DNA of 64,000 nucleotides from Sinomonas humi (GTDB lineage Bacteria > Actinomycetota > Actinomycetes > Actinomycetales > Micrococcaceae): positions 62,001-126,000 of the forward strand of contig NZ_JTDL01000145.1 of NCBI RefSeq assembly GCF_000802235.1, given 5' to 3'. This document shows, one piece after another, positions 201-16,051 of the stretch (positions are counted from its first letter, which is position 1; each line of letters opens with the position of its first letter). A model generated the notes under the pieces. That model ran no database searches and was not told the origin of the DNA. It saw only the letters and a list, made by a program, of their open reading frames with translations. The position numbers and the translations under genes are program-made.

Positions 201-1823
201 ATGTCGGGTGTTGTCGAATATGCAGATTGGAACCGCGCGATCGGTGAGGCGTTCTTCGGACCTCATGCAGAGGGCGAGCTCGTCTACCTTGATTCCGATG
301 CTGATGCCTTCAGAGAAGCTTGCCGCCGAGTGGGCGTTGCCGAAGACGAGGCAGGCGATTCGCTGGGCTCAAGCGTCCGCTCCCTGCTGAATCTGAGGGG
401 GTCGCACAGGGCAACCTTCGCCAACTTCGATCAGATGACTACCCAATGGGCCCGTCGTCGAAGGAAGGCTGTCCGCGAAGGCGAGAGGACTCCGTTGCCG
501 CCCGTTATTGGGCTGCTCATGATCTTCTCGATGGCGGCGGAGCGAATGGGCGCTCGTGATCCCGGAACCGTTAAGACCGAGGCGGGCTATTACGCGCAAC
601 TGGAGAGGCTCCTCCGGATCCCGGTACCGGATTCAACGAGAATCAGGGCCAGCTTTCGTGCCACTTCCGAGACGTATTGGGAAGCGCTCAGCCTGTGGTT
701 GGAGGATCTGGACGGAGCCTATGGTCTACCGAGCGCTCATGCCCTGACTCACCGATACGTGGGTCTGCCGATTTCGCAGGCCCTGATTCGCGACACCGAG
801 CGTCGCCACATGCATTCGATGTTTGTCGATCAGGGTTTCGTTGTGGGCGTCCCGGTCTCCCATGAGGAGATGCGCGACGCAATCGAGAACTGGATTCATT
901 CCCCTTCGGCCGCCCCCAATGCCGCCTTCCGAAAGATGTGGGCGTCGGAGGAGACGCGGCCGAAGATTGCGGACGCTGCCATAGCTGAGCTGCTTGCATG
1001 GGATGGTGGCGGCATCATTGCGGGTCGGGGTCCGGACGCTAAAACTGGCGCTGCCCAAGGACGTTGCTTCCTCACAGTGAGGGAACGCCGCAAGGCTCTA
1101 AAACGAAGTTATGCGCTCGGCCTCGCGGTTAAGCAGGTGAGAGGTGTGGCTGGCGACGCCAGGATCAAGCTTGCGGGAAATGAGACTGCAACCGTTGATG
1201 TTTCCCCCTTCTCTTCGGGCCTGGCTGACTTGAGGACTCCGGCAGAGATAGCGCCCGATAGTCTGCTTGAAGGCGAAGTGATCATCGAGTGGGCAGACGG
1301 ATCTCGTGCTCAACGTTCTCCAAAGCGAGTCGTGGTCTTTGGCCAGGACGCGGCCACGGGCAGCTATATCGAGATTGACCGTATCGTTCCTTCACTGGGG
1401 AGCAGACTCCTCGTGAAGGACGAGGGGGACCTTGTAGCCGCAGCCGAGGCCATTCTCAAGGATGCTGCCGCTCCTGGATTCAAGCGAATCGATGGCCCGG
1501 GCTACGACTTGCCAGTTGGATGGGCCCTTTTCTCAGACGTTCAGTTGCTCCGAGCGCCTCGCAGCGACGAGATTCAGCGGCACCGGGATCTTTCTTGCCT
1601 TGAGCCGCGGATGAGTACGCAGCTTGCCATTCAAGGCGGTCTGAGGCTGCCGGGAAGGATTCCCAAGTGGGTGGCCGGGCGCGGGATGCACGTGGTGGTA
1701 ACGGCAGAGGGTGAGACGCCAGTAGATCTCGTCGCATCTCTACGAATCCTGAGACGCTTCAGGCCGAGGAGCGCTGGCTGGCGCGTGAAGTTGTTCCCCC
1801 TGCGTCCGTGCCTTTACTTGTGA
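201..1823 (+). CDS. Defence-operon protein, N-terminal part (split by frameshift; DruH-like by position)
   Basis: First gene of the putative anti-phage operon. I chose ATG 201 because GGGGGGAAG lies 7-8 bases upstream; an in-frame ATG at 147 lacks such a site. The protein starts MSGVVEYADWNRAIGEAFFG. I recognise no catalytic motif. The last 27 or so residues, after VDLVASL, are arginine-rich and unlike the rest. The minus-one frame over the same bases reads TNPETLQAEERWLAREVVPP and runs smoothly into the next reading frame. I infer that this gene and the next are one ancestral gene of about 1008 codons broken by a one-base loss near 1735-1745. A large unannotated protein directly before a DUF1998 helicase is the layout of Druantia type III (DruH-DruE). 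The homology itself is not shown here. Confidence 0.7.
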   Translation: MSGVVEYADWNRAIGEAFFGPHAEGELVYLDSDADAFREACRRVGVAEDEAGDSLGSSVRSLLNLRGSHRATFANFDQMTTQWARRRRKAVREGERTPLPPVIGLLMIFSMAAERMGARDPGTVKTEAGYYAQLERLLRIPVPDSTRIRASFRATSETYWEALSLWLEDLDGAYGLPSAHALTHRYVGLPISQALIRDTERRHMHSMFVDQGFVVGVPVSHEEMRDAIENWIHSPSAAPNAAFRKMWASEETRPKIADAAIAELLAWDGGGIIAGRGPDAKTGAAQGRCFLTVRERRKALKRSYALGLAVKQVRGVAGDARIKLAGNETATVDVSPFSSGLADLRTPAEIAPDSLLEGEVIIEWADGSRAQRSPKRVVVFGQDAATGSYIEIDRIVPSLGSRLLVKDEGDLVAAAEAILKDAAAPGFKRIDGPGYDLPVGWALFSDVQLLRAPRSDEIQRHRDLSCLEPRMSTQLAIQGGLRLPGRIPKWVAGRGMHVVVTAEGETPVDLVASLRILRRFRPRSAGWRVKLFPLRPCLYL

Positions 1824-3226
1824 GTGAGGAGGGCGAAGATATCGTCCTGTCGCTACGTCGGGGCAACAGCGTGCTTCAGGAACTTAAGGTTCGTGTCCGA
1901 TCATCTGATTCGCCCCGCGATGCGACCCTCCCCGATTTTGCTTCTCTTTGTCACGATGCTGAGGATCGTCTTTGGCCATTGACAGCTGTGCCGTTCGCAG
2001 CGGTACGAGACCTGATTGTTGATGGCATCGTGTGCTCTGGCGAAAGCTGCGAGGTCGGTGAAGTCTCGGTTCCCCGCGTTCCGGATTGGGTTGGCACCAG
2101 GGTGCCTATGGCTGAACAGAAGATGTTGCGGGTTCCAGCTATCGATTCAAACTCCTGCTTGATAACCGGCAAGCACAAAATGCAATTGCCGACTTTCGAT
2201 AAGCGGCCGAGGCATCCATGGATGTATGGAACATGCAGCGAATGTCATATCAGCAAACGTTATCCGACTTGGCCGCGGAAGTCCAAGGAAGTTGAAAATA
2301 GGCAGAGCGTGCGGAAAGGTCAACTGCCGCCGACAACGGCACTGTCTTCATGGCCTGATTTGATCGAAGCTGTAACTTGTCTCGGCCGAGGGACATATAG
2401 CGATTTCCGCTTCCTCGCAAGGCAAGTGGAGGACTCTGCTTTTTTTGTTCGACATGCGCTTACTTCTCTGGACGGACTGTCCGTTATCGAAGTCGAACGT
2501 GATCGCGAGCTTCGACCAATCAGCTGGGAGACTGCGCCCACCTGTGCAGCCGAACTACCCGACGGAGGCTGGATTCTCACAGGTCACTGGTCTCGAGACC
2601 TGAGAGGGTCCGTGCTCGATGACGTTGAGGCAGCCGGAGGATGGGTTCGGGCTACGCCCTTAGGCTCCGCGTCCTTGGCAGTCGTTGGCGGAGTTTCCCC
2701 GATCGACGCGGGGGAGATATTCGAGGGGCATAACGTAGAGGTGGCACCGTCCGCAGGGCTCACGCTCGCTATGGTCCTGCCGCGGCTGTCCGAAGTACTC
2801 AAGGGAGTCGTGGCCGTGCCCATGCCGTCTGTCGCAGAAGCTCTCTTTTTCGATTTGGGAAGCGCTCAATGGCGTCCGATATCGCATACGACGTTACCGG
2901 GCGCGTATAAGATCTCAAATCGCTTTAAGGATACTTATCTATTTCGGAGTCGGGAGGACGCCTCCAATGGAACTGCCCGGCGGGTGCTTCCTGAACTCGC
3001 AAAGCATTTGGCTGCCATGAGTGCGGCTAGGCCAATAGTTCGTTACGATCCGGACAGTGAGTTGCTAAGAGTGCCAGCCGGGTGCGAACTCCCAGGGCTT
3101 TTCGCTCGGTCTGCAATTATGTGCAGCGGGGAACTGCCTCAGTTTGAGGCAAAGTCGGCATCGCTCGCATACCCGAATATATCAGCTGAAGTAGCAGGCT
3201 TGCTCATTGGAAAGGTCATGTCGTGA
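1808..3226 (+). CDS. Defence-operon protein, C-terminal part of the split gene
   Basis: The 472-residue frame could begin at GTG 1808, but that codon has no ribosome binding site and overlaps the preceding frame by 16 bases. The frame is open upstream to a stop at 1712-1714, and the sequence between is protein-like, so it is best read as the continuation of the preceding gene. It has a cysteine plus CSECH-type cluster (codons around 2155 and 2233-2247) that could bind a metal. No enzyme family is recognised. The stop TGA overlaps the helicase start (GTGA at 3223-3226), so the two are probably translationally coupled. If the frameshift is real the full protein may not be made; if it is a sequencing error there is one intact gene of about 1008 residues. 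Confidence 0.7.
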   Translation: MPLLVSEEGEDIVLSLRRGNSVLQELKVRVRSSDSPRDATLPDFASLCHDAEDRLWPLTAVPFAAVRDLIVDGIVCSGESCEVGEVSVPRVPDWVGTRVPMAEQKMLRVPAIDSNSCLITGKHKMQLPTFDKRPRHPWMYGTCSECHISKRYPTWPRKSKEVENRQSVRKGQLPPTTALSSWPDLIEAVTCLGRGTYSDFRFLARQVEDSAFFVRHALTSLDGLSVIEVERDRELRPISWETAPTCAAELPDGGWILTGHWSRDLRGSVLDDVEAAGGWVRATPLGSASLAVVGGVSPIDAGEIFEGHNVEVAPSAGLTLAMVLPRLSEVLKGVVAVPMPSVAEALFFDLGSAQWRPISHTTLPGAYKISNRFKDTYLFRSREDASNGTARRVLPELAKHLAAMSAARPIVRYDPDSELLRVPAGCELPGLFARSAIMCSGELPQFEAKSASLAYPNISAEVAGLLIGKVMS

Positions 3227-6200
3227 ATAAACCCACGCCCCTAACGCTCGCGGCCGATCTGAAGGAAGCCCTCTTGCGGTACGTCAACTCCAACTACCGC
3301 CTACGTTCGCCCGGTCTCCGTGAAGAACGACTCGAACTATTGTCAGCAGATGGAAGAATCTTTGCGGAGCCCTTGGTCGAGCCCGTCCTGCCATATCCGT
3401 TGACAGATGATCTCGGAGAGGTCGCATCAGCGGCTGGCTATTCTGCCGAGACCGCGCGAGTGGTGGGCGATGCCCTATTCCGTCAGTTCGGAGCGGAGCG
3501 CCCAGGCATCCGGCGACATCAGGCTGAGGCAATAGGTTGGAACGCTGGCAGTGCGAGTCGACCTCCTAAGCATGTCGTGGTCACCTCGGGAACTGGCTCC
3601 GGTAAGACGGAAGCGTTCCTGCTGCCGATCCTTCTCCGTCTTGTAGAGGAGGCTCGGGGCTGGGAAAAGCAGCCTCTGCCCGTTCAGTGGTGGGAAGGTG
3701 CAGACGTTAAGACGTGGACTCCTCTAAGGAGCGGTGAAGGTCGACCAGCCGCTCTTCGAGCCCTCATCCTCTACCCCACCAATGCACTCGTCGAGGACCA
3801 GCTGTCTCGCCTGCGACAGGCCTTCCGCCGAATAGAGCAGTCGTTGCCACAAGCCCGCCTGTGGTTCGGGAGGTATACGAGCGCAACCATAGGCCGCAAT
3901 CGGATCCCTTCGTCTGGAGATGCGTCGGTGAAGGCTGCTGCCACCGAGATACAATCCCTCGCTCACGAATTCCGACAGCTGGCCGACTCGGGCAAGGCTT
4001 CAGAAGCTGATCTCGCGCTGTTTGCCGACCCAACGAATCATGAAATGGTCTGTCGCTGGGACATTGTGCAATCACCGCCAGATATCCTCATTTCAAACTT
4101 TGCCATGTTGAACGCGGTGCTTATGCGCGAATTTGAGAATGACATCTTTGCGCGAACTCGGTCATGGCTGGATGAGTCAGCGGAGAATACTTTTACTCTC
4201 GTTGTTGACGAGCTTCATTCATACAGAGGTGCTGCAGGTAGCGAGACCGCTCTGTTGATCCGGAGATTACTAGATAGACTAGGCCTCGGTGAGGGCAGTC
4301 CTCAGCTAAGGATCATCGCCGCTAGCGCTTCTCTGAATGACTCGAAAGAGGGGCGCGAATATCTTGAGGAGTTTTTTTCGGTTCCTCGAGAGAGCTTTGG
4401 GATATCGGCAGGTCAACCACGTCAGATCCGCGCAGTCCTGCCACTGGACCGCCAACAGGTCGTCGATCCAGCTCCGCGGATCTCCATGTCCTCCAGTGAA
4501 CTCTCGGAAGCTGTAGCAGCCGCTTGCTATCAGCCCGACGAAGGACGATATCGCGCACAGTACCTGACAGAGCTAGCGCGCAGATTGTTCGGGGAGCGAG
4601 ACGAGGGTCTCCTGGGCCTGGACAGAGTCTTTTCAGCAATTGCTCGTGATGGCGTGAATGGTGGAATCCCTCTTCGTGGTCACATGTTCGCACGAGTCTT
4701 GCCTGGCCTGTGGGCCTGTTCAAACATTGACTGCTCCGGTGTATCTCCGGCACACCGCGATGAGCATCGAAACGTCGGACGTCTATTCGCTGTTCCTGCC
4801 TCTGTCTGCGAATCCTGCGGCGCACGAGTCTTAGAACTGATCTACTGCCAAGAATGTGGCGACGCCAGCCTTGGCGGCTACTTTCTCACTCAAGGATCCG
4901 ACGGGATGGAGGTCTTGAGTTCGACCCCCGCTGGGGTTTCCGTCGACACCGCCAGTCTCGTCAGTAGCCGCCAGAGACGTGATTATCGTTGGGTCTGGCC
5001 ATGTCGCACAGAGGAGGCTCCTCTCGGAAAGACGACGTGGAGCCACGGCGAGGTCGAAATGTCCTGGCAACCCGCGGTGCTGTCTTCTACGGGCCAGCTA
5101 GAAATTGCCGCCGCCGAGGGTTCCAACGCATGGGTCGTCCAAGCTGGATCCAAGGGAGTTCTGGCGCACGAGTTGCCGGCCCTGCCTGGGCGCTGCCCGA
5201 GATGCGGTCACTCCGGTCGGCAGCAGACGGCTTCATTCGTTGCGGGTCATATATCGTCGCCACTCCATGGCCACGCTACGTCGGCATCGCAAGCGGTCTC
5301 TGTGTATCTTCGCCAGCTCTCACGTTCATTGGGAGAAAAGCCGTCAGATTACAAGACAATTGTATTCACCGATAACAGAGACTCCGCAGCGCGGACGGCG
5401 GCGGCGTTGGCCGTACGTCAGTACCACGACATTCTGGTCCAGGTGTTGCGGCGAGGACTCGATGAGGGGGCTCAGTTTGACCTGATCTCCTTGCTCGAGA
5501 TCTTCGTCAGCGACAAGGCTCAACTCAATGCGTCCCAGCTGGCGACGGTATCCGCTGCCCTCACTAAGGACCCGGCCCTTCTCTTAGCTGTGATGAAGCT
5601 CTCGCAGGGAATCGCCGACCCCGAAGACGAGGAATTGCTCGCATCGGTCCGGCATAGTGATCGTCAAGGCATCAATTGGAGCGATCTAAGAACTAATGCG
5701 GAACGGCAAATGGTCGAACTGGGCGTAAGTCCGGCCGGAGCCGGTTTCAGTTCCCTGATGAGTCTCGGAGCCGATTGGTATAAATACTACGATCCTCCTC
5801 AGCCCGGTATGTGGGTACAAGAAAGCCTGACAGAAATCAGTCTAGGACGGGACCTGATCCGAAGAAAATTGTCGGAAGAGATGTGCCGAACAATTTTCGA
5901 TTCGGGACGAAGGGACGTCGAGTCGGCAGGACTTGCCAGAATCTTGACGCCAGTGCAGGAGCTGCACGGTGTGGCACTCGCGAACAACGTTGTCGCTGAG
6001 TGCATTGCAAGTTGCGTACGGATTCTTGGCCTCGATGCCTACTATGACCAGTCATTCAGATCCCAGCTCTCCAGTGGAGGTACGCCTTCCAGCATCAAAC
6101 GATATCTGGAACGAGTGGCTAGGGTTCATGGTGTCGCAGCGGATCAGCTGGTGAATGCGGTTTATATCGCGCTTCGCGACAGTGGTCTGGTCGAGGAGTG

Positions 6201-8556
6201 GATTCTTCGAACAGATAAGTCGGATATTCCTTTGAAATTTGGTCCCTGCGACGATGATTTCTGGGAGTGTCAACAGTGCGGCTTTCGCCATGCTCACCCG
6301 TCTGCAGGGGTTTGCGCCAATAAGGGCTGCAGTTCAGTAATGCTCATGCGTCGACTTTGGCGGAATGTAGGCCCGGAGTACCAAGACTGGCTGTCAGATC
6401 AGTCAGTGCGACGTATTGCAGTTGCCGAATTGACAGCTCAGACGAAGCCTGCAGAGGAACAGAGGAAACGACAGCGGTGGTTCAGGGGCGTGAACCTGCC
6501 AGAACCCCAGGAGAACCCGCTTACTTGTGCGCTCGACGTCCTTAGCGTCACGACTACCATGGAAGTTGGAGTCGACATTGGCGCCCTGAACGCGACGTTG
6601 ATGGCAAATATGCCGCCCCAGCGATTTAACTATCAGCAGAGAGTGGGTCGGGCGGGACGTGCCGGCCAGCCGTTCTCGTTTGCCATAACGGCATGTAGGC
6701 CGAGTGCCCATGACGAATATTACTTTATCAATGCGAGTCGCATGACGGGCGATCTTCCTCCGCAACCCTTCCTCGATATGAGACGTTTGCGCATTGTTCA
6801 AAGGGTCATCGCGGCGGAGGTCCTTCGGCGAGCCTTTCTGGAGATGCCTGGGCGTCCCGAGTGGTCGCCTGAGTCGCTTCACGGAAGCTTTGGCAGAAAA
6901 GGCGAGTGGCCAGCGCGTAGGTCGTACGTGGGAGACTGGCTCCGTGAATCGGGGCAGGTGCGGCAAGTGGTTGTACTGCTTGCGCAGAAGACCGGTCTGG
7001 GTAGGGACGAGGTGGATGAGCTAGAAAGTTGGGCTCGGAAGGACCTGATCGGGCAGATCGATGACGTCTTGAAAGTTCCGGAGCTCGGCGGTTACGAAGA
7101 GTTGAGCCTCTTACTAGCGTTGGCGGGGGTGCTGCCGATGTACGGCTTCCCCACTCGCGTCCGGAAACTTTTCTACAAGCAACCTGGGCGCGACCTGGAA
7201 GAAGCAGTTGTTTCAGACCGTCCATTGGCGCTGTCCCTTACTTCGTATTCTCCTGGCTCGTCGACGGTGAGAGATCGCGTCGTTCACACGGCTGCCGGAT
7301 TCGCCCACTACACCCGCGAAAAGGGCCGATGGCTCGCGGCTGATCCGCTCGGCGCCAAGCATGCCGTTGCCCGTTGTCGGCAATGCGTAACAACCTTCGT
7401 AGATCAAAAGGTTTCCGGTGTCTGTTCCTCGTGTGGCGGTGCCATCGAGAGCTTTTCGATGTACGAGCCACTTGGCTTCAGAACCACCTACAAGGCCGCA
7501 GAGTTTCAGTTGGATGAGCCGCGCCCTGCTTCGAGAAGCCTGCCGACCTTTGCGGCCGCGCAGATGGAAACGTCGCTAATACAAATCGGAGCGGTAGATG
7601 TGCGCGTATTCGAAAGGGGCCGCGTACTCCAGTATAACGACAATAGGGGTCGTCTCTTCCGACTCCTGCGGCAGGATGATAAAACGGTGGTAGCGTCCGA
7701 CTCGGCGCTCTATCCTAAAGGATGGAAGGCGATGCCTACGACTGGGCAGGACTTGGGGCCTTGTGCGATCGGAGAAGTCCACACTACCGACGCTTTGACC
7801 GTTGACATCGTCCGCGCTCCTACTGACTCCGGCCGGCTCTTCTTGAACGATGCGCAAATTCCAGCCGCCAGGGCCGCATATTGGTCTCTCGCCGAGGTCT
7901 TGCGGAAGGGAGCTCAGCATCTGTTAGATATTGATCCTAGCGAGTTGCAAGCAGGTCTTGAGTATTTCAGTTCAGGCTTGGATCCCGTTGCACGCGTGTT
8001 TCTAGCCGACGCTCTCGACAATGGCGCCGGTTATGCCGTTGAGATCGGGACAGAGCAGAATTTCTCACGTCTTCTTCACGAGACGAGGACGGAGCTGTCC
8101 AAGGCCTATGAGTCGATCGAGCATGTGAGCTGCGGTAGTTCCTGCCCTGATTGTCTCCGGGCCTGGGATAATCAGCGGCTGCACGGCGCACTGGACTGGC
8201 GTCTGGCCTTGGATATGCTTGACATCGCCTCCGGTCACCCGCTGAAGCTGGAGCGGTGGACAGTTCGGACCGGCGAACTTAATGCTGTTGTCGGTCACAT
8301 CGGCGAAGGTCTCTTCATAGACGACTCTGGTCCAAATGGAATCCCGATAGTCGTCTTCGACGAAGGAGGCAGCGGTGCCGCTGTCGTGATCGGTCATCCT
8401 CTATGGAACCACGCCCCAGATCACTTCAACCCGGTTCAGCTGGAGACACTGGAGTACGTGCAGTCCCGTTACTCTCATCTCAAGGTTTTCATGAGTGACT
8501 ATTACGAGTTTGATCGAAGGGCGATTTCCGTTTTGGATGCTGCGATCAATGGGTGA
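3223..8556 (+). CDS. YprA-family DEAD/DEAH helicase with DUF1998 domain (DruE-like)
   Basis: Superfamily 2 helicase of 1777 residues, predicted to translocate on nucleic acid as the core of an anti-phage system. Visible motifs: Walker A TSGTGSGKT (about 121-129), motif II VVDELH (about 327-332), motif III ASAS, then a very long insert, then helicase C with TTTMEVGVDIGALNATLM and motif VI QRVGRAGRAG (about 1139-1148). Paired cysteines near residues 529-545 (CESCG, CQECG), 658 (CPRCG), 1018-1035 and 1385-1405 look like zinc knuckles. The DUF1998 signature CGSSCPDCLRAWDNQ lies near 1637-1651. About 100 residues follow it. Size and architecture match DruE of Druantia and related YprA-family defence helicases better than the shorter housekeeping YprA/MrfA. 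The start overlaps the previous stop by 4 bases, and its own stop overlaps the McrB start in the same way. Confidence 0.88.
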   Translation: MNKPTPLTLAADLKEALLRYVNSNYRLRSPGLREERLELLSADGRIFAEPLVEPVLPYPLTDDLGEVASAAGYSAETARVVGDALFRQFGAERPGIRRHQAEAIGWNAGSASRPPKHVVVTSGTGSGKTEAFLLPILLRLVEEARGWEKQPLPVQWWEGADVKTWTPLRSGEGRPAALRALILYPTNALVEDQLSRLRQAFRRIEQSLPQARLWFGRYTSATIGRNRIPSSGDASVKAAATEIQSLAHEFRQLADSGKASEADLALFADPTNHEMVCRWDIVQSPPDILISNFAMLNAVLMREFENDIFARTRSWLDESAENTFTLVVDELHSYRGAAGSETALLIRRLLDRLGLGEGSPQLRIIAASASLNDSKEGREYLEEFFSVPRESFGISAGQPRQIRAVLPLDRQQVVDPAPRISMSSSELSEAVAAACYQPDEGRYRAQYLTELARRLFGERDEGLLGLDRVFSAIARDGVNGGIPLRGHMFARVLPGLWACSNIDCSGVSPAHRDEHRNVGRLFAVPASVCESCGARVLELIYCQECGDASLGGYFLTQGSDGMEVLSSTPAGVSVDTASLVSSRQRRDYRWVWPCRTEEAPLGKTTWSHGEVEMSWQPAVLSSTGQLEIAAAEGSNAWVVQAGSKGVLAHELPALPGRCPRCGHSGRQQTASFVAGHISSPLHGHATSASQAVSVYLRQLSRSLGEKPSDYKTIVFTDNRDSAARTAAALAVRQYHDILVQVLRRGLDEGAQFDLISLLEIFVSDKAQLNASQLATVSAALTKDPALLLAVMKLSQGIADPEDEELLASVRHSDRQGINWSDLRTNAERQMVELGVSPAGAGFSSLMSLGADWYKYYDPPQPGMWVQESLTEISLGRDLIRRKLSEEMCRTIFDSGRRDVESAGLARILTPVQELHGVALANNVVAECIASCVRILGLDAYYDQSFRSQLSSGGTPSSIKRYLERVARVHGVAADQLVNAVYIALRDSGLVEEWILRTDKSDIPLKFGPCDDDFWECQQCGFRHAHPSAGVCANKGCSSVMLMRRLWRNVGPEYQDWLSDQSVRRIAVAELTAQTKPAEEQRKRQRWFRGVNLPEPQENPLTCALDVLSVTTTMEVGVDIGALNATLMANMPPQRFNYQQRVGRAGRAGQPFSFAITACRPSAHDEYYFINASRMTGDLPPQPFLDMRRLRIVQRVIAAEVLRRAFLEMPGRPEWSPESLHGSFGRKGEWPARRSYVGDWLRESGQVRQVVVLLAQKTGLGRDEVDELESWARKDLIGQIDDVLKVPELGGYEELSLLLALAGVLPMYGFPTRVRKLFYKQPGRDLEEAVVSDRPLALSLTSYSPGSSTVRDRVVHTAAGFAHYTREKGRWLAADPLGAKHAVARCRQCVTTFVDQKVSGVCSSCGGAIESFSMYEPLGFRTTYKAAEFQLDEPRPASRSLPTFAAAQMETSLIQIGAVDVRVFERGRVLQYNDNRGRLFRLLRQDDKTVVASDSALYPKGWKAMPTTGQDLGPCAIGEVHTTDALTVDIVRAPTDSGRLFLNDAQIPAARAAYWSLAEVLRKGAQHLLDIDPSELQAGLEYFSSGLDPVARVFLADALDNGAGYAVEIGTEQNFSRLLHETRTELSKAYESIEHVSCGSSCPDCLRAWDNQRLHGALDWRLALDMLDIASGHPLKLERWTVRTGELNAVVGHIGEGLFIDDSGPNGIPIVVFDEGGSGAAVVIGHPLWNHAPDHFNPVQLETLEYVQSRYSHLKVFMSDYYEFDRRAISVLDAAING

Positions 8557-10415
8557 GTTCATGTCTCAGTCTTGTGGAAGGTGTCGGTTTGAGTAACGAG
8601 TATGTGGCCGCGGTACAGGCTGCGGGGCACGGACCCGCGCCCGAGGTGGAGGCTGCCGGGCAGGCCATCATCCATGCGGGTATGCGGCGGGAGCAGTCTC
8701 CATACTGGACGGAATGCACGTGGACTGAAGAGAACGCGACAGAGCTGATTCGCCGGATCTATGAAAACGCCGACATGGGCGCCGGGAGCTTCCGTGAGAA
8801 ACTGAGGAAGCAGCTGGATGGTGCACCGAAAGCGGTATTTGTCTTGGCTGCCGAACTTATCTCGATTCATCTCCTCCCAATCTCGACAACCTTGGGTGCG
8901 ACCAAGCGGTCGAGGATTGAAGAGGTGCTTCAGTGGGCAGACACCGACTACACCATTCCCGAGGTAATCGAGCGGGCCTTTAGCGCCCCCGGATCTTTCG
9001 GGAGTGGCACCGGGTACAACACGAGCCAATGGGAGCATGTCGTCTGGCTCGCAAAGTTCGTCCAGCTGGTGAGCTCGTTGTCCCAGTCCCAGCGTGACGA
9101 GGCGCTCACGGCTCCCGAGGCGTTTGCCCGACTGACGGATGCTGTGGAGCATCGTGTGCAGGGAATCAGATTCGCCCTCGAGTACCTGGCTTGGCCGAGT
9201 TACTTCCCACCGGTCGTGAGTAGAGACCATCGAAGGAGGATCAGGGCCGCCTTCTCAGCCCAGATTGGCGGCGTCAGCGGAGACAGTGAGTTGGCGATCA
9301 GCCAAGATCTCGCAGCGATTCGTCTCCACCAAGAGCAGGAGTTCGGCCGAGGACAGGTCGAGTGGTACGACTCACCATTCCGCGAACAGTGGGATGCAGA
9401 GAAGCAGACGTCCAAGCTCGAAGAGATCGAAGTTGCGGCAGAGCGTTCTCACCCAACTGAATCGCAGAGGACTGCCGGCTCAGACGGGTTGCTGTTCGAC
9501 GTTAGTGATGAACTCGCCGACTCCTTGTTTGTGGACCGCGAGGGCCTGCAGGAGGTCATCGAACTGCTGAGGACGCGGAAGCAGATCGTCCTCTACGGCC
9601 CACCCGGGACGGGGAAAACCTTCTTGGCGCGTGCACTCGCTCGGCATCAGACTGGTGAGTCCAGCCAGGATCTCGTGACGACGGTCCAGTTCCATCCGTC
9701 CTACGCATATGAGGACTTTTTCGAAGGTTATCGACCGACGTCCGACGGCAAAGGGAACGTTGGCTTTCGACTCGACCCAGGCCCGCTACGCCGTATCGCT
9801 GCTGCAGCTGCTAAGCCTGAGAACCGCGACAGGCCTTTCTTCCTGATCATCGATGAGATGAACCGCGGGAATCTCGCGAAGGTATTTGGCGAGCTGTATT
9901 ACCTGCTCGAGTATAGAGATGAGGCGATCGCTCTTCAATACAGCCCCACCGAGTCCTTCTCTTTGCCGCCCAACCTGTTCCTCATAGGAACGATGAACAC
10001 AGCTGACCGCTCCATTGCAATGGTCGATGCGGCTATTCGACGACGATTCGCATTTGTGGAGCTCCACCCTCAAGAGGGGTTGATCGCGAACATGCTCTCG
10101 CGTTATCTCACGGCCAACGGTATGAGCCAACTGCGGGCGCAACTCCTCGACACCCTTAATAAGGAAATCGACCCCTCGGGGCGAGACCTGATGATCGGCC
10201 CCTCCTACTTCATGAAGCGCGACGCCGATTCTGAGGACGGGCTCAGCCGCATCTGGAAGTACGAGCTTCTTCCCTTACTAGAAGAGCACTACTACGGTCG
10301 GCTCGAACGAGCGCAGGTTCACGCCCAGTTTGGACTTGAAGGCATTCGCCGGCGAGCTACCATCTCTGCGCAGGCTCGGGACAGTGAGGGAGACGACGAT
10401 TCAGTCGAAAGCTGA
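8553..10415 (+). CDS. mcrB: McrB-like AAA+ GTPase of a type IV restriction system
   Basis: McrB proteins form hexamers that hydrolyse GTP and drive the McrC nuclease on modified DNA. The AAA+ module is clear: Walker A YGPPGTGKT (about 348-356), Walker B FLIIDEMNRGN (about 429-439), and the McrB signature GTMNTADRSI (about 480-489) followed by RRRFAFVEL. The 340 or so residues before it match no DNA-recognition domain I know; in McrB proteins this region reads the target. GTG 8553 is chosen because it overlaps the helicase stop as GTGA, implying coupled translation. A TTG lies 36 bases further in. The C-terminus overlaps the start of mcrC. I am sure of the family; the target is unknown. Confidence 0.9.
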   Translation: MSSCLSLVEGVGLSNEYVAAVQAAGHGPAPEVEAAGQAIIHAGMRREQSPYWTECTWTEENATELIRRIYENADMGAGSFREKLRKQLDGAPKAVFVLAAELISIHLLPISTTLGATKRSRIEEVLQWADTDYTIPEVIERAFSAPGSFGSGTGYNTSQWEHVVWLAKFVQLVSSLSQSQRDEALTAPEAFARLTDAVEHRVQGIRFALEYLAWPSYFPPVVSRDHRRRIRAAFSAQIGGVSGDSELAISQDLAAIRLHQEQEFGRGQVEWYDSPFREQWDAEKQTSKLEEIEVAAERSHPTESQRTAGSDGLLFDVSDELADSLFVDREGLQEVIELLRTRKQIVLYGPPGTGKTFLARALARHQTGESSQDLVTTVQFHPSYAYEDFFEGYRPTSDGKGNVGFRLDPGPLRRIAAAAAKPENRDRPFFLIIDEMNRGNLAKVFGELYYLLEYRDEAIALQYSPTESFSLPPNLFLIGTMNTADRSIAMVDAAIRRRFAFVELHPQEGLIANMLSRYLTANGMSQLRAQLLDTLNKEIDPSGRDLMIGPSYFMKRDADSEDGLSRIWKYELLPLLEEHYYGRLERAQVHAQFGLEGIRRRATISAQARDSEGDDDSVES

Positions 10416-11643
10416 ACCCCGTACCCACCTGGTGCTCGATGAGCTCGAGCGCGTGCCCCAGCGAGTGTTCGTCGATCCCTCGACTGCCCGCAAGATCGCT
10501 GGCTTGGGTCTCGTGACTATAACACCGGCTTGGGAGGGCGGCATGGACCTCTTACCCACAGGGCGGGTGGGTGCGATACAGGTCGAGGATCTTCTCATCG
10601 AGGTCAGACCGAAGGCAAGGGTTGGACTCGACCGCATCTTGTTCTTGCTAGGGTACGCTGCAGATCCGGGGTTTCGTCCAGATGACCTTGCCGGCGCGAC
10701 CTTCGATGATCTTTTCAGTGCTCTGGCCGAATCAGTGGCGCGACAAGTCGAACGAGCTCTCACGCTCGGTCCGATATCCGGATACGTGCGCGTTGAGGAG
10801 GCTCTGCGATCAGTTCGGGGCCGAATTAGGGTAGGCGAACAGATCGCGCGCCACCCCGGAATGCTGCTGCCCCTCGAAATGACCTTCGACGACTACACCG
10901 CCGATATACCAGAGAATCGGATACTCCGCTCGGCGATACGTCGGGTTCGAGGGCTTCCCAGACTAGCTCCGGATTTGTCCCGGCGTCTAGGACATTTGGA
11001 TGCGAAACTCGATGGAGTTGGCGTGCTTGCACCGGGGGAGCCTTTACCGGCATGGCACCCGTCACGACTCAATGCCCACTACCTCCCTTCATTGCGGATC
11101 GCAGAACTCGTTCTCAGAAACTTGTCTTCTGAAGCCGGGATCGGTGGGCAAACTATCGCCTCCTTCATTGTCGACATGGCGAAGGTTTTCGAGGACTTCG
11201 TGACGGTGGCTCTGCGCGTGGAACTGGGCAATCGAGGATACGCCGCTCAAGCGCAGTATCCGATTGTGCTCGACCAACCGCAGCCAGATGGAAACCAAGT
11301 ACGGATGTTTGCAGACGTGGTTCTGATGGCGAAAGGGCGCCCAGCGGGTGTATTTGATGCGAAGTACAAGGCGTCCTGGCGTGGATCGTATTCCAATGCC
11401 GATCAATACCAGATGCTGGCATACTGCACAGCGCTCGATGTCCGAATAGCATGGCTTCTCTATGCCGACTCTGGCGTTAGCCGAGCTCGGCGGATCGTCA
11501 ATACGGAAGTGTCGGTCAATGAGGTTCCCATCGATTTGTCTCGCAGCCCGAGCGAGCTGTTGGCCTCGATCGGCGACTTGGCGAAGGTAGTCCTGTCCTC
11601 GGACGAGTGGGGACAACCGTTGACGCGAGACTCGATCGCCTGA
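10384..11643 (+). CDS. mcrC: McrC-like PD-(D/E)xK nuclease subunit
   Basis: Partner of McrB and the likely DNA-cleaving subunit. The C-terminal half carries the nuclease signature: an aspartate in MFADVVL, then FDAKYK (D-x-K) about 20 residues later, then the helix ADQYQMLAYC with its conserved glutamine. The N-terminal half fits the McrC domain that contacts the McrB hexamer. The frame is open upstream to TTG 10330. I prefer GTG 10384, which cuts the overlap with mcrB from 86 to 32 bases, although neither start has a good ribosome binding site. Last gene of the lower-GC operon. Nothing resembling a mobile-element gene follows. Confidence 0.88.
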   Translation: MRETTIQSKAEPRTHLVLDELERVPQRVFVDPSTARKIAGLGLVTITPAWEGGMDLLPTGRVGAIQVEDLLIEVRPKARVGLDRILFLLGYAADPGFRPDDLAGATFDDLFSALAESVARQVERALTLGPISGYVRVEEALRSVRGRIRVGEQIARHPGMLLPLEMTFDDYTADIPENRILRSAIRRVRGLPRLAPDLSRRLGHLDAKLDGVGVLAPGEPLPAWHPSRLNAHYLPSLRIAELVLRNLSSEAGIGGQTIASFIVDMAKVFEDFVTVALRVELGNRGYAAQAQYPIVLDQPQPDGNQVRMFADVVLMAKGRPAGVFDAKYKASWRGSYSNADQYQMLAYCTALDVRIAWLLYADSGVSRARRIVNTEVSVNEVPIDLSRSPSELLASIGDLAKVVLSSDEWGQPLTRDSIA

Positions 11644-11699
11644 GAAGTCGGAAACCCCTTGCCCCACCATTGTGACCCATGCCATACTCTCTCTCGATA

Positions 11700-11714
11700 C
11701 GCATCGACGATACG
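11700..11714. promoter_or_regulatory. Probable operator of the LacI regulator (site 1)
   Basis: Imperfect 15-bp palindrome CGCATCGACGATACG, 28 bp before the lacI-type start codon. The same site with a T at its centre lies before the ABC transporter operon (12811-12825). LacI-family proteins bind odd or even palindromes of this size; autoregulation is inferred. Confidence 0.6.
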
Positions 11715-11742
11715 GTTCGACGAGCACGAGGAGGTGACTGCG

Positions 11743-12765
11743 ATGCCAACAAGCAAGGACGTAGCTCGCCTAGCCGGCGTCTCGCAGAGCACCGTCTCGT
11801 ACGTCATGAGCGGCCGTCGGCCCATCTCCGAGAAGACCCGCAAGCGCGTAGAAGACGCGATGGCGCAGCTCGCTTTTCAGCCGAACGCCGGCGCCCGCGC
11901 CCTCGCCAGTCGACGCAGTCAGGTCATCGGCCTCGCGATCCCGTTCGTGCCCGATCTGCACCGCGGCTCGATGATGGGGTTCATCTCCGTCATTGCCGCC
12001 TCGGCACGGCAGAGCGACTACGACATCCTCCTCGTCACCGATGACGAGGGCCCACAAGGCCTCGAGCGCGTCGTCGGCCAACAGCTCGTCGACGGGCTCA
12101 TCATCATGCAGGTCGAGGGCGACGACGCCCGCGTTCCCGTGATCCGCAACCTCCCCGTCCCGAGCGTCCTCATCGGTATCCCCGAGAAGCACGAGGGCCT
12201 CAAGTGCATCGACGCGGACTTCGAGCTCGCCGGCCAGATGTGCGTCGAGGAGCTCGCCAAGCTCGGCCACGAGACGGTGACGCTCGTGAACTGGCAGGAC
12301 GCCGTCGTCCGACGTCGCGTGAACTACGTCAAGCGGTTCCACCACGGCGTCGACAAGGCGGGCGCCGCAACAGGCGCCAAGATCATCCATGTCCCGGGCC
12401 GCGCCACGATCGCCGGCATGGAGAAGGCCGTCGCCAATGCCCTCGAGCAGACCAAGGGCGTCCCGGCCTTCATCGCCCCCGAAGCCGCCAACCAGGATCT
12501 TCTCGTCGAGGCCCTCAACAACTTGGGCCTCGTCCTCGGGAAGGACGTCTCCGTCGTCGTCAATTGCTCCGACAGCCTCGCCGAACGGCAGCGCATCCCG
12601 CTGACCACCATCGACTTCGAGCCCGACCAGGTCTCGCGCCGGGTTGTCCAGATGATCGTCCACGACCTCACCGAGCCCACGTCCAGGTCCCATGAGGCCC
12701 TGGAGCTCATCCGGCCAGTGTTCAAGCACCGGAAGAGCACCATCCGTCCGCGCCCCCAGCGCTGA
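11743..12765 (+). CDS. LacI-family transcriptional regulator
   Basis: Sugar-responsive repressor of 340 residues. The N-terminal helix-turn-helix is SKDVARLAGVSQSTVSYVMS, with the hinge helix PNAGARALASRR, then the periplasmic-binding-protein-like effector domain. ATG 11743 is chosen for the strong GAGGAGGTG just upstream; an in-frame ATG at 11659 would add an unusual leader. It precedes an ABC importer, GH127 glycosidase and sugar-catabolic genes on the same strand, and the two intergenic regions share one palindrome, so it probably controls that operon and itself. The inducer is probably an arabinose-containing sugar, judged only from the glycosidase. Confidence 0.92.
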   Translation: MPTSKDVARLAGVSQSTVSYVMSGRRPISEKTRKRVEDAMAQLAFQPNAGARALASRRSQVIGLAIPFVPDLHRGSMMGFISVIAASARQSDYDILLVTDDEGPQGLERVVGQQLVDGLIIMQVEGDDARVPVIRNLPVPSVLIGIPEKHEGLKCIDADFELAGQMCVEELAKLGHETVTLVNWQDAVVRRRVNYVKRFHHGVDKAGAATGAKIIHVPGRATIAGMEKAVANALEQTKGVPAFIAPEAANQDLLVEALNNLGLVLGKDVSVVVNCSDSLAERQRIPLTTIDFEPDQVSRRVVQMIVHDLTEPTSRSHEALELIRPVFKHRKSTIRPRPQR

Positions 12766-12810
12766 CATTCCTTACCCCTGCGAGCCGTTCCACCCCGGCA
12801 ACAATCGATA

Positions 12811-12825
12811 CGCATCGTCGATACG
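12811..12825. promoter_or_regulatory. Probable LacI operator before the ABC transporter operon (site 2)
   Basis: CGCATCGTCGATACG is the site 1 palindrome with one central base changed. It sits inside a direct duplication of CGATACGCATCG (12806-12817 and 12819-12830), 52-66 bp before the binding-protein start. The duplication may allow two dimers to bind. Confidence 0.62.
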
Positions 12826-12876
12826 CATCGACAACCCAAGAAGTGAAACATCCCCTAGAAGCGAAGGAGCTTTTCT

Positions 12877-14097
12877 GTGAAGAATTCACGCGTTTTCGCC
12901 GCGCTCGCTGGAGCGGCCTCCATCACGCTCGCCTTGGCGGCGTGCGGGTCGGGATCCAGCACCGCCTCCTCGGGCGGAAAGCAGACGCTGACGATCGAGG
13001 ACTACTACACCAGCACCTACGATCCGCTCTACAAGGACTGCGGCCAGCAGGTCGGCGTGAACGTGAACCCGGTGCACGTGGCCGGCGCGGCGCTGATCGC
13101 GAAGGTCCTCCAGCAGGCGTCCTCGAGGACGCTGCCCGACGTCCTGATGCTCGACAACCCGGACGTGCAGCAGATCGCCGCGACCGGCGCACTCGCGCCC
13201 CTCAAGGACTTCGGCGTCAGCGCGCCCGCGGGCGACGTTCCCGGCGTCGTCAACGCCGGCACTTACAACGGCCAGGTCTACGGCCTCGCACCGGTCATCA
13301 ACTCGATCGCGCTGTACTACAACGTTGACATGCTCAAGGCCGCAGGCATCACGCCGCCCAAGACCTGGGACGAGCTCAAGGCGGACGCGTCCAAGCTGAC
13401 GGACGCGAGCAAGGGCGTCTACGGCTTCGCGATGAGCAACATCAACACCTACGAGGGTACGTGGCAGTTCCTGCCGTTCTTCTGGACCAATGGGGGTGAC
13501 GAGAAGAACATCAACAGCCCGGGCGCCCAGCAGGCGCTGCAGCTCGTCGTCGACCTCCAGAACAACGGTTCGATGTCGAAGAGCTCGGTCACGTGGAGCC
13601 AGCAGGACGTGAACAACCAGTTCATGGCCGGCAAGGCCGCCATGATGATCAACGGCCCGTGGCAGCTGCCCGCGCTCAACGGCACGAAGGGCCTGAACTT
13701 CGCGAGCGTGCCGATCCCGACCCGCACGGCCGACCAGCAGATCGTCTCCCCACTCGGCGGCGAGACGTTCAACGTCCCGCAGACCGGCGACAAGACGAAG
13801 ATGGGGCTCGCAGCCAAGTTCGTCAACTGCCTCAACACGCCGGCCACGCAGGTGAAGATCGCGGGGATCTCGGGCAACGTGCCCGCGCAGGAGTCGGCGG
13901 CCGCCGACTGGGCGAAGAGCCACCCGCAGGTCCAGTCGTTCGTCGAGACCGTGAAGACGGCCCGCGCCCGCACCGCCGAACTCGGCCCGAAGTGGCCCAC
14001 GGCCGCGACCGCCATCTACACGGCGGTTCAGAATGCGCTCACCGGCAAGGCATCACCGGCGGACGCGCTCCAGCAGGCGCAGGCGCAGAACAAGTAG
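12877..14097 (+). CDS. ABC transporter sugar-binding lipoprotein
   Basis: Extracellular solute-binding protein, family 1, 406 residues. The signal peptide ends in the lipobox LAAC (Cys23), so it should be anchored to the outer face of the membrane. Start GTG 12877 has GAAGGAG 8 bases upstream. The body resembles carbohydrate-binding proteins (for example MLDNPDVQQIAATGALAPL and NGPWQLPAL). It precedes two permeases; no ATPase is encoded in the operon, so a shared MsiK-type ATPase elsewhere is likely. Judged by the downstream GH127 enzyme, the ligand may be an arabinose-containing oligosaccharide. Confidence 0.9.
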   Translation: MKNSRVFAALAGAASITLALAACGSGSSTASSGGKQTLTIEDYYTSTYDPLYKDCGQQVGVNVNPVHVAGAALIAKVLQQASSRTLPDVLMLDNPDVQQIAATGALAPLKDFGVSAPAGDVPGVVNAGTYNGQVYGLAPVINSIALYYNVDMLKAAGITPPKTWDELKADASKLTDASKGVYGFAMSNINTYEGTWQFLPFFWTNGGDEKNINSPGAQQALQLVVDLQNNGSMSKSSVTWSQQDVNNQFMAGKAAMMINGPWQLPALNGTKGLNFASVPIPTRTADQQIVSPLGGETFNVPQTGDKTKMGLAAKFVNCLNTPATQVKIAGISGNVPAQESAAADWAKSHPQVQSFVETVKTARARTAELGPKWPTAATAIYTAVQNALTGKASPADALQQAQAQNK

Positions 14098-14106
14098 ACC
14101 GGGCAC

Positions 14107-14134
14107 GCCGGGGGCGGACAGCCCCGCCCCCGGC
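14107..14134 (+). terminator. Perfect 11-bp hairpin between binding protein and permeases
   Basis: GCCGGGGGCGG (14107-14117) pairs exactly with 14124-14134 around a 6-base loop, 10 bp after the lipoprotein stop. No U-tract follows. Such hairpins often protect or partly terminate the transcript so that more binding protein than permease is made. Confidence 0.55.
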
Positions 14135-14158
14135 ACCCGTTCCGCAAAGGAGCGTGAC

Positions 14159-15130
14159 ATGACCTCAGTGAGTGACATGACCTCAGTGGGCGGCCGCCTC
14201 GATCGGCGCGCGCGCCCGACGGCGGGCGGCCCGACGGCGCCGCGGCGCAGGCCCCGGCTCGGCCGCCAAGTGGCCAGGTGGCTCTTCGTCGCACCGGCCG
14301 TCATCTTCGTGCTGGTCTTCTTCGGCTATCCGATCGTGCAGAACGTGATGATGTCGCTGGAGAACTACACGACCACCACCTTCTACACGGGCGAGGCGCC
14401 GTGGGTCGGCTTCGCGAACTACGTCACCGTCTTCACGAACCCGCTGTTCACGACGACGGTGATCAACACCGCGCTGTTCACGGTCGGCTCGATCGTGTGC
14501 CAGTTCGTACTCGGCCTCGGGCTCGCGCTGTTCTTCAAACGGCATTTCCCGCTCGGCGGGTTCCTCCGCTCGCTGCTGCTCCTGCCGTGGCTGCTTCCGC
14601 TCATCGCCTCGGCTGCAGTGTGGAAGTGGATCCTGGACCAGGGCTCGGGAGCGCTCAACCAGTTCCTCGGCCTGTTCGGGGTGAGCCCCGTGCCGTGGCT
14701 CGTGAGCCCGAGCCTCGCGCTCGTCGCCGTGATCGGCGTGAACATCTGGCTCGGCATCCCGTTCAACACCACGATCCTCTACAGCGGCCTTCAGGCCGTG
14801 CCGGAGGAGCTCTACGAGGCGGCGTCGCTGGACGGGGCCGTCGGGTGGAAGGCGTTCTGGCACATCACGTGGCCGAGCATCCGCTCGGTGGTGGGCGTCG
14901 TCGTCGTCCTCGGTGTCGTGTACACACTCAAGGTTGTCGACATCATCCTCGGCCTCACCGGGGGAGGGCCCGCGAACTCGACCCAGACGCTCGCGACGTG
15001 GGCGTACCAGAACTCGTTCGTGCAGTTCCTGTTCGGCCAGGGCGCCGCCGTGAGCAACGTGCTGATCGCGGTCTCGCTCGTCTTTGCCCTGGTGTACCTC
15101 TCGATGACCCGCAAGGAGGTCGACGAATGA
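14159..15130 (+). CDS. Sugar ABC transporter permease (MalF type)
   Basis: Inner-membrane subunit of 323 residues with about six transmembrane segments. The EAA loop that docks the ATPase is visible as EAASLDGAVGWKAFWHITWP (about 221-240). ATG 14159 follows AAAGGAG. The first 16 codons contain a short duplication (MTSVSDMTSVGG), so a second possible start lies at codon 7. The stop overlaps the next permease as ATGA. Confidence 0.92.
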   Translation: MTSVSDMTSVGGRLDRRARPTAGGPTAPRRRPRLGRQVARWLFVAPAVIFVLVFFGYPIVQNVMMSLENYTTTTFYTGEAPWVGFANYVTVFTNPLFTTTVINTALFTVGSIVCQFVLGLGLALFFKRHFPLGGFLRSLLLLPWLLPLIASAAVWKWILDQGSGALNQFLGLFGVSPVPWLVSPSLALVAVIGVNIWLGIPFNTTILYSGLQAVPEELYEAASLDGAVGWKAFWHITWPSIRSVVGVVVVLGVVYTLKVVDIILGLTGGGPANSTQTLATWAYQNSFVQFLFGQGAAVSNVLIAVSLVFALVYLSMTRKEVDE

Positions 15131-15990
15131 CGACGGCGACGCAAGCAATCCTCGCGCCCGGCGGCGTGCGGAAGGACCGCAACCGGCCCTCGCGGAAATG
15201 GCCGATGACGGTGCTCGGCATCATCTTCCTGGCCATCATGATCTTCCCGGTCTACTGGATGATCAACAGCAGCCTCCAGGCGAACTCGGGGGCGGTGAAC
15301 ACGGACTGGTTCCCGATCCATCCCTCGTTCGCCGGCTACCAGACCGCCTTCGCGCAGCAGGGCACGAACCTCGTCACGAGCCTCATCGTCTCGGTGAGCA
15401 CCGTAGTGCTGACCCTCGCCGTCGCCACCCCGGCCGCGTACGGGCTCGCGCGGTTCAAGATGAAGGGAATGACGGCGTTCGTGTTCGTCCTGCTCATCAC
15501 CCAGATGATCCCCACGATCGTGATCGCGAATGCGCTCTACACGCTCTTCAACAGCGTGGGGCTGCTGAATTCGTACCTCGGCCTGATCCTCGCGGACAGC
15601 GCGGCGCAGATCCCGTTCTCGATCCTGCTCATGCGGGCGTTCATGACGTCGATCCCGCCCACCCTGGTGGAGGCGGCGCTGGTCGACGGCGCGAACAACT
15701 TCCGTGCGTTCGTCTCGATCGTCCTGCCGATCAGCAAGAACGCGATCATCACGGCGGCGCTGTTCGCCTTCCTCGGGGCGTGGGGCGACTTCCTGTTCGC
15801 CCTGACGCTCACGAGCACACCCGACGTCCGCCCGATCACCCTCGGCATCTACAACTACCTCGGCGCGAACGTGTCCCAATGGGGGCCGGTCATGGCTACG
15901 GCCGTGATCGCGTCCATCCCCGCTGGGGTGCTGCTCGTCCTTGCGCAGAAGTACATCGCGGCCGGCGCCCTCGGCGGCGCGGTCAAGTGA
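15127..15990 (+). CDS. Sugar ABC transporter permease (MalG type)
   Basis: Second permease of the importer, 287 residues, with an N-terminal [11 protein letters not shown] segment typical of MalG-like proteins and the EAA loop [20 protein letters not shown] (about 181-200). The 4-bp ATGA overlap with the upstream permease implies coupled translation. The heterodimer should form the channel for the sugar delivered by the lipoprotein. Confidence 0.92.
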
Positions 15991-16012
15991 AAGACGCGGT
16001 CAAGTGAAACGC

Positions 16013-16031
16013 GGCCGAGTGAAACTCGGCC
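16013..16031 (+). repeat. Hairpin within degenerate repeats after the permease gene
   Basis: GGCCGAGT and ACTCGGCC form an 8-bp perfect stem around GAA, 21 bp before the next start codon. The region 15979-16037 is built of three or four imperfect copies of a unit ending in AAGTGA, GAGTGA or ATGTGA, as if the 3' end of the permease gene had been duplicated. Possible mRNA-processing or translation-tuning element. Confidence 0.45.
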
Positions 16032-16051
16032 ATGTGACAAAGGAGAAACAC

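What the first reader, a model, noticed from the sequence alone, without database searches (positions are those of the whole stretch)
201..11643. Candidate composite defence system: DruE-like helicase module joined to McrBC
Seen: a large protein of unknown function, a 1777-residue DUF1998 helicase, McrB and McrC in one operon, with GTGA overlaps at 3223 and 8553 and an mcrB/mcrC overlap. Known: DUF1998/YprA-family helicases are the core of Druantia, DISARM, Dpd and the more recently proposed ARMADA-type systems, and McrBC is a separate type IV restriction system that cuts modified DNA. Inference: translation coupling across the boundary suggests one machine in which the helicase feeds or licenses a GTP-driven nuclease, rather than two systems that merely sit together.
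Basis: partly seen in the sequence, partly recalled or inferred. Interest (0 to 1): 0.85.

Follow-up and report, generated by a model that had tools for sequence, protein, structure and literature searches.

The report
Druantia core genes joined to McrBC
An actinobacterium carries, on what looks like one acquired DNA cassette, the two core genes of a known anti-phage system (Druantia) directly followed by a second known one (McrBC); the pairing was not seen in the relatives examined and one core gene is frame-broken in this assembly, so it looks like a rare stacking of two defences rather than a new conserved machine.

Summary
The operon exists. The DUF1998 helicase is DruE of the Druantia II kind. 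The "large unknown protein" is DruF, broken into two reading frames near 1733-1745. McrB and McrC keep their motifs. The GTGA overlaps at 3223 and 8553 are real.

The composite is not conserved. Of 103 distinct DruF-DruE loci from other genomes, 0 have McrC and 1 has an McrB fragment, 8 kb away. Of 20 McrBC loci fetched, 0 have DruF. DruE and McrC do not co-occur in genomes above chance.

Evidence for a local unit remains. The genes seem to lie in one ~11.7 kb cassette of low GC, missing from a same-genus genome. In 31 of the 103 loci a third gene follows druE within 30 bases, often the nuclease DruK. The 7 loci closest by DruE have no cytosine methyltransferase; 5 have a methyl-directed enzyme, an HNH enzyme or ZacA downstream. 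This McrB lacks a middle domain that 8 of 9 aligned relatives have.

Best reading: DruFE and McrBC transferred and made together, separable in function. Bolder reading, not excluded: McrBC fills DruE's nuclease slot.

The parts
201..1823 (+). druF, N-terminal half (540 aa; homology ends about 1733-1745, the rest of the frame is open by chance)
   Evidence: PADLOC DruF2 1.3e-103, profile 23-519 of 1030; tblastn with 7 intact relatives ends in frame 3 at 1730-1745
1730..1745 (+). reading-frame break in druF (frame 3 to frame 2)
   Evidence: the 7 closest relatives have one intact druF (1006-1018 aa matched); no long homopolymer there, by eye
1808..3226 (+). druF, C-terminal half (472 aa from a GTG; the homologous frame begins upstream, at about 1733-1745)
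   Evidence: PADLOC DruF2 2.9e-93, profile 535-1006 of 1011; also DruL4 2e-15
3223..8556 (+). druE, YprA-family (DUF1998/MZB) SF2 helicase, 1777 aa; GTGA overlap with druF
   Evidence: PADLOC DruE2 1438.8 bits, DruE4 1276.3; DEAD, Helicase_C, MZB; helicase motifs invariant in 4 homologues
8553..10415 (+). mcrB, AAA+ GTPase, 620 aa; GTGA overlap with druE
   Evidence: AAA_5 1e-18; NF008457 McrB 1.5e-46, below its curated cut-off; PDB McrB 6hz4 7e-49
8613..9407 (+). helical N-terminal region of McrB (residues 21-285; helical by a very poor single-sequence model)
   Evidence: matches the N-terminal regions of 12 of 19 McrB relatives, best L141 4.1e-75; secondary structure only
9417..9491 (+). 25-residue linker (residues 289-313) where 8 of 9 aligned relatives have a 167-178-residue middle domain
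9507..10325 (+). McrB GTPase domain: Walker A 349-356, D434, E435, N482, T483, D485
   Evidence: columns invariant over 18 McrBs, the window's included
10330..11643 (+). mcrC (437 aa from TTG 10330, or 419 aa from GTG 10384), PD-(D/E)xK nuclease with D329 and D343-A-K345 (numbering from 10330)
   Evidence: PF10117 8.1e-53; D329 and D343 each in 20 of 21 rows, K345 in fewer
11656..11656 (.). right edge of the cassette: homology to 5 same-genus genomes starts here; the left edge, seen in one genome, lies about 41 bases before the window (contig C52:61959)

Best explanation
It is a DruF-DruE core of the Druantia II kind, with no druM in the genome and no DruG match in the operon, followed by McrBC, all on what looks like one horizontally acquired cassette. 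Shown: gene content, overlaps, right edge, GC, absence of the pairing in the relatives examined, and the druF frame break. Inferred: DruE, like type III DruE, loads on single-stranded tails of phage DNA and opens it. DruF is the likely sensor or regulator. McrB translocates on DNA with GTP and McrC cuts. Translation coupling makes the proteins together. The modules most likely act in parallel on the same phage DNA and can each work alone; help of DruE for McrBC is possible but not shown. Whether DruF still works here is unknown.
For: Family identities. 4-base overlaps. One cassette: the right edge, 12-13 bases after the mcrC stop, is the same against the 5 same-genus genomes that have the flank (5 of 14 searched). 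In G007 the sequence just left of druF lies 778 bases from that flank, without the operon. GC is 57.6% (druFE) and 58.7% (mcrBC) against 62.1% left and 68.5% right. The modules are apart elsewhere: 0 McrC in 103 DruFE loci, 0 DruF in 20 McrBC loci. DruFE is also followed by genes of other defences: SauUSI-like, HNH, ZacA, PtuA-like. Type III DruE loads on 3' single-stranded DNA (PMC13192584, passages).
Against: The exact GTGA coupling, the missing middle domain of McrB, and the coupled third gene in 31 of 103 other DruFE loci fit a tighter link than mere neighbours. The druF frame break, if real, could make the Druantia arm dead and leave McrBC alone. The left edge of the cassette rests on one genome at ~65% identity. 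Only one locus has the pair, so statements about it rest on one case.
Confidence: 0.58

Rival explanations
1. One machine: McrBC has been captured as the exchangeable nuclease of DruFE. DruE's own C-terminal nuclease is predicted inactive in Druantia II, so a nuclease coded downstream would do the cutting; here McrBC, without the middle domain of its relatives, is aimed by DruF/DruE.
For: 31 of 103 DruFE loci have a same-strand third gene within 30 bases of druE: 13 in a cluster whose scanned members L049 and L054 are DruK, a PD-(D/E)xK nuclease (12 of the 31 match DruK by phmmer), 13 in a ~650-aa family whose scanned member L104 has only weak helicase and NERD+UvrD matches, 5 others. Closest 7 loci: SauUSI-like methyl-directed enzyme in 2 (nearly identical) and HNH enzyme in 2. 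McrB lacks the middle domain that 8 of 9 aligned relatives have (these 9 were picked from 19, being 9 of the 12 that share the N-terminal region). An inactive Vsr domain in Druantia I/II DruE is stated in PMC12458937 (passages). In PMC13192584 (passages) DruE can serve by engaging DNA while Zorya supplies the main effector activity against T3.
Against: 0 of 103 other loci use McrBC. McrBs without the middle domain also stand without DruFE (L237, L238). In the closest 7 loci the next gene starts 102-789 bases after druE, so it is not coupled. ZacA and PtuA-like genes next to DruFE show that plain stacking occurs.
Confidence: 0.2
2. Decayed cassette: druF is truly broken, DruFE is dead, and only McrBC still protects.
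For: The frame break lies inside a region that is one protein in the 7 closest relatives. In the DruF model of L043 the matching residues 506-508 fall in a strand of the beta-sheet region, not at a boundary between large parts.
Against: Neither half nor druE has a further break; identity to L043 and L008 stays 40-45% on both sides, and to the seven relatives as a whole it is 42-45% on the N side and 34-41% on the C side. A draft assembly of 156 contigs can hold an error. Elsewhere the N and C halves of DruF are separate ORFs (for example L098-L100), though cut at another place.
Confidence: 0.17
3. The druF break is bridged by programmed frameshifting, or the two halves are made as two proteins on purpose.
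For: A GTG at 1808 could start the second half; both halves are kept open.
Against: No slippery heptamer seen by eye at 1730-1745; the 7 closest relatives do not do this.
Confidence: 0.05

Closest known systems
Druantia type II (DruM, DruF, DruG, DruE)
   Same: DruE best matches DruE2 and DruF best matches DruF2
   Different: No DruM-type methyltransferase in the genome (0 PF00145), no family named DruG among the operon's PADLOC hits; McrBC follows druE; druF frame-broken
Druantia type IV (DruE, DruF, DruL; PADLOC 2021, PMC8565338, passages)
   Same: DruF plus DruE without DruM and DruG; the C half of DruF matches DruL4
   Different: The type II profiles of DruE and DruF score higher; the 7 closest relatives have one fused DruF, not DruF plus DruL
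DruFE with DruK (PD-(D/E)xK nuclease coupled to druE)
   Same: A nuclease gene directly after druE with a 4-base overlap (L049 and L054 scanned)
   Different: DruK there is one protein of ~350 aa; here a two-gene GTP-driven nuclease
McrBC (type IV restriction)
   Same: GTPase motifs and the McrC nuclease motif kept
   Different: Lacks the middle domain of 8 of 9 aligned relatives; sits behind druFE; scores for the NCBIfam McrB and McrC equivalogs are below their curated cut-offs
DISARM/ARMADA-like cassette with McrBC (association reported by Bell 2024, 2025; a case seen here at L144)
   Same: A YprA-family helicase operon with McrBC directly downstream on one strand
   Different: That cassette has a DpdE/DrmD-like helicase and a DrmMI/PglX-like protein and no DruF match; its helicase is a distant DruE homologue

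Membership tests
Druantia type II | DruE of the type II group | tested here: met
   DruE2 1438.8 bits, over DruE4 1276.3 and DruE1 526.9
Druantia type II | DruF | tested here: met
   both halves match DruF2, but the gene is frame-broken
Druantia type II | DruM cytosine methyltransferase | tested here: not met
   0 PF00145 matches in the own genome; the control search rings in 10 of 14 genomes
Druantia type II | DruG | tested here: not met
   no family named DruG among the PADLOC hits of the five operon ORFs (one hit of DruE not shown; that the library holds a DruG model is presumed); the rest of the genome was not tested
Druantia type IV | separate DruL gene | tested here: not met
   DruL4 similarity lies in the C half of DruF, which is fused in the 7 closest relatives
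[quoted passage not shown]
   no such second helicase or methyltransferase among the five operon ORFs
McrBC type IV restriction | McrB GTPase with NxxD motif and McrC PD-(D/E)xK nuclease | tested here: met
McrBC type IV restriction | cuts modified DNA | not testable with these tools
   needs an assay; no base-reading domain is identified in this McrB
CoCoNuT (Druantia I/II as 'Type IV CoCoNuT', Bell 2025) | inactivated CnuB (McrB-like) protein | tested here: inconclusive
   profile comparison of DruF with McrB: probability 0.2; Foldseek of a DruF model: no match under E 0.001, no McrB among the 50 of 542 rows shown
Conserved DruFE-McrBC composite system | same gene order in other genomes | tested here: not met
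   0 of 103 distinct DruFE loci with McrC (91 with at least 3.2 kb downstream of druE); 1 McrB fragment 8 kb away

The most novel reading that the evidence does not exclude
DruF-DruE is a targeting and DNA-opening core with an exchangeable nuclease slot. DruK fills it in many lineages; here a GTP-driven McrBC without the middle domain of its relatives fills it, aimed by DruFE instead of by base modification. The closest DruE clade would have swapped a self-marking cytosine methyltransferase for enzymes that attack methylated DNA.
Probability: 0.18. Interest if true: 0.68.

Novelty: new variant of a known kind. Interest (0 to 1): 0.4.

Why it matters
In Druantia II the helicase has a nuclease domain predicted dead (PMC12458937, passages), so in the papers I saw it is open what cuts the phage DNA. 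The comparison here points to a gene place after druE that holds different enzymes in different lineages, which makes the question testable by deleting or swapping that gene. The clade that holds this window has no C5-methyltransferase in any of 8 loci (window included), against 63 of 96 other loci. This suggests a simple rule: a DNA-methylating defence and a methyl-cutting one should not sit together. The count follows one clade, so it is a hint and not independent evidence.

Tried and rejected
One conserved machine: rejected as a conserved system. Co-evolution of McrB and DruE: not testable, one joint locus. DruF as a dead McrB: no support from profile comparison or Foldseek, both of limited reach. 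Middle domain of other McrBs as an EVE/YTH-like base reader: my guess from its sequence pattern and place; no Pfam match over a cut-off that covers it (weak hits to unrelated families only) and one chance-level PDB match, so I do not claim it; tblastn finds it in 7 plasmid records, each of which also has an McrB match. Structure of the window's McrB: single-sequence model useless, mean pLDDT 38.6. First genome-contig scan with DruE alone found nothing; the scan with alignment A1 worked (119 relatives, the best 80 kept). The 11 plasmid records with DruE homologues were not examined for McrBC. Promoter and terminator scan: no more sites than shuffles. Paper search for DruK with Druantia: none. 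An alignment of McrB with McrC was a mistake of mine and was not used. The paper search was swamped by the words 'drug' and 'drum'.

Full report
What is there. The window is contig C52:62001-126000 of a 4.4 Mb draft genome in 156 contigs. The named genomes with the closest DruE (52-54%) are Zafaria, Paeniglutamicibacter and Arthrobacter; the first two are Micrococcaceae, Arthrobacter by recall. Five ORFs run on the + strand: 201-1823, 1808-3226, 3223-8556, 8553-10415, and 10330- or 10384-11643. The first two are the halves of one gene, druF (PADLOC DruF2, profile 23-519 and 535-1006). tblastn with intact DruF of L008, L041, L042, L043, L062, L078 and L173 gives matches in frame 3 up to 1730-1745 and in frame 2 from 1733-1745 on. 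The third is DruE (DruE2 1438.8 bits). The last two are McrB and McrC; against the NCBIfam equivalogs both fall below the curated cut-off (159 of 637 bits and 68 of 338). Junctions 3223 and 8553 are GTGA. The 12 kb left of druF hold a LanM-like protein, a two-component pair and ABC genes by reading of the ORFs; by eye I saw no methyltransferase or defence gene there.

Are the proteins whole? DruE keeps its helicase motifs and zinc cysteines (invariant in 4 homologues). McrB keeps Walker A, D434, E435, N482 and D485 (invariant in 18 rows). McrC keeps D329 and D343 (each 20 of 21 rows). DruF is the exception.

One cassette. The LacI-type gene after mcrC was found in 5 of 14 same-genus genomes at E 1e-40. 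In these 5 the homology of the right flank starts at C52:73655-73656, about window 11656, 12-13 bases after the mcrC stop. In G007 the stretch C52:61254-61959, just left of druF, lies 778 bases from that right flank, without the operon; its identity is ~65%. Only this one of the 5 shows both flanks. In G009 the neighbour is a segment that lies at C52:37.5-39.3 kb in the window's own contig, so the region is fluid. GC is 57.6% for druFE and 58.7% for mcrBC, against 62.1% (12 kb left), 68.5% (right to the window's end) and 64.5% (C52:19.9-50 kb). The simplest inference is that the genes came together.

Is the pairing conserved? DruFE loci came from genome contigs (76 loci) and from the genome search. 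G330, G364 and G493 were not fetched because their places agree with L041, L062 and L042. Of 111 loci examined 8 were duplicates, leaving 103. All 96 that have 3 kb upstream have a same-strand DruF match in the locus; 91 have at least 3.2 kb downstream. With HMMs built from 27 McrB and 30 McrC ORF matches, the window's own included, McrC was found in 0 of 103. McrB was found in L045 (a 192-residue fragment 8 kb downstream) and, at 20 bits, in L054, which I count as chance. In the other direction I fetched 20 of the 32 other McrC places: the best 19, then G255, with G187 passed over. Upstream reach is about 11-14 kb, but L153 and L155 are cut short by contig ends. None has DruF; one, L144, has a distant DruE homologue. 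At genome level, DruE in 15 and McrC in 32 of 297 genomes share 2, the window's own included, where 1.6 are expected. So the pair is rare.

What follows druE elsewhere. In 31 of 103 loci a same-strand gene starts within 30 bases of the druE stop. 13 fall in a cluster whose scanned members L049 and L054 are DruK (12 of the 31 loci match DruK by phmmer), 13 in a cluster of ~650 aa whose scanned member L104 has only weak helicase matches, 5 are others. Genes there came from a simple codon-score caller of mine, so starts are rough; in the window's right flank it called spurious minus-strand genes. In the DruE tree (FastTree, 101 rows; L046, L067 and L114 left out as split or short) the window is sister, with support 100, to 7 rows. 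Downstream these have a SauUSI-like enzyme (L043 scanned; L078 nearly identical), HNH_2 proteins (L041 in Pfam; L062 by PADLOC HNH), ZacA (L042), an 816-aa protein without a family (L173), and a transposase-like gene (L008, named by eye). None of the 7 has a C5-methyltransferase in the locus; 63 of the other 96 do at 120 bits or more. With the window, Fisher p is 0.0004 but takes no account of the tree. The window's genome has no PF00145 match, so its McrBC would not meet 5-methylcytosine made by that family in its own cell.

The McrB. It shares a region of ~265 residues at the N end with 12 of 19 McrB relatives, and the GTPase with all 19. I aligned 9 of those 12: where L141, L142, L143, L144, L146, L149, L151 and L157 have 167-178 residues before the GTPase it has 25. 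L150 also lacks that domain but has an N-terminal extension with, by eye, a helix-turn-helix look. McrBs of Rhodococcus plasmid L237 and genome G274 (L238) match the N region and the GTPase and not the middle-domain profile, with no DruE or DruF match in the stretch fetched. So loss of the domain does not need DruFE. What the domain does is unknown.

DruF. AlphaFold of DruF of L043 (29 rows, none from the window; mean pLDDT 82.2) shows helices to about 265, mostly strands from about 285 to 565, a Cys/His cluster at 649-679, and an alpha/beta end. Foldseek gives nothing under E 0.001; many of the weak top rows are, as I recall their folds, proteins with Ig-like repeats. That is a hint only. In Druantia III the partner DruH has Ig-like domains and is thought to be the sensor (PMC13192584, passages).

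Mechanism. DruE of type III loads on 3' single-stranded DNA and, against T3, helps by engaging DNA while Zorya supplies the main effector activity (PMC13192584, passages). Type II DruE has a nuclease domain predicted inactive (PMC12458937, passages). From this I infer that DruFE here opens or holds phage DNA and that McrBC adds a GTP-driven cutter, made together by coupled translation. Parallel action is more likely than one machine, because nothing in the 103 other loci ties the two.

Literature. PMC12458937 (abstract and outline, section 5, passages) and PMC11090510 (passages) report a DISARM-like cassette or system associated with McrBC; the first names its YprA helicase and the canonical McrBC, and classes Druantia I/II as a fourth CoCoNuT group. 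L144 here looks like such a cassette: YprA helicase, DpdE/DrmD-like helicase, DrmMI/PglX-like protein, McrB, McrC on one strand. PMC8565338 (passages) defines Druantia IV. I saw no description of DruFE with McrBC in the searches, which cover open-licence papers only; of these I read passages of four papers (PMC12458937, PMC11090510, PMC8565338, PMC13192584).

Noticed in passing
C52:16201-19535 of the same contig (L240), about 43-46 kb left of the operon, outside the window: A second, different McrB-McrC pair; two called genes further lies a 1179-aa protein whose C-terminal part matches MkoA (4.2e-35).
   Followed up: partly
L098, L099, L100, L102, L107 (Streptomyces): DruE followed at 54-143 bases by an AAA ATPase like PtuA/PDC-M01A (L098 scanned; the other four by clustering); the N and C halves of DruF are separate ORFs upstream.
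   Followed up: partly
L203 and L204, L173: Genes after druE of 582 and 576 aa (gap 0) and of 816 aa (gap 618); L203 and L173 have no PADLOC match and no Pfam family over its cut-off; L204 was not scanned.
   Followed up: no
L144:2857-18001: ARMADA-like cassette with McrBC on one strand in another genome of the order.
   Followed up: partly
L007:1810-5049 (C52:51810-55049), left of the operon: LanM-like lanthipeptide synthetase beside two-component and ABC transporter genes; named by eye from the translations.
   Followed up: no
window 11659-16846: LacI-type regulator, sugar ABC transporter genes and a ThuA-like protein directly right of the cassette; named by eye.
   Followed up: no
L250 (G009) 3590-5413 and 13347-16525: Upstream of the same LacI gene another genome of the genus carries segments that lie at C52:34-39 kb in the window's contig: this region has been rearranged.
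   Followed up: no
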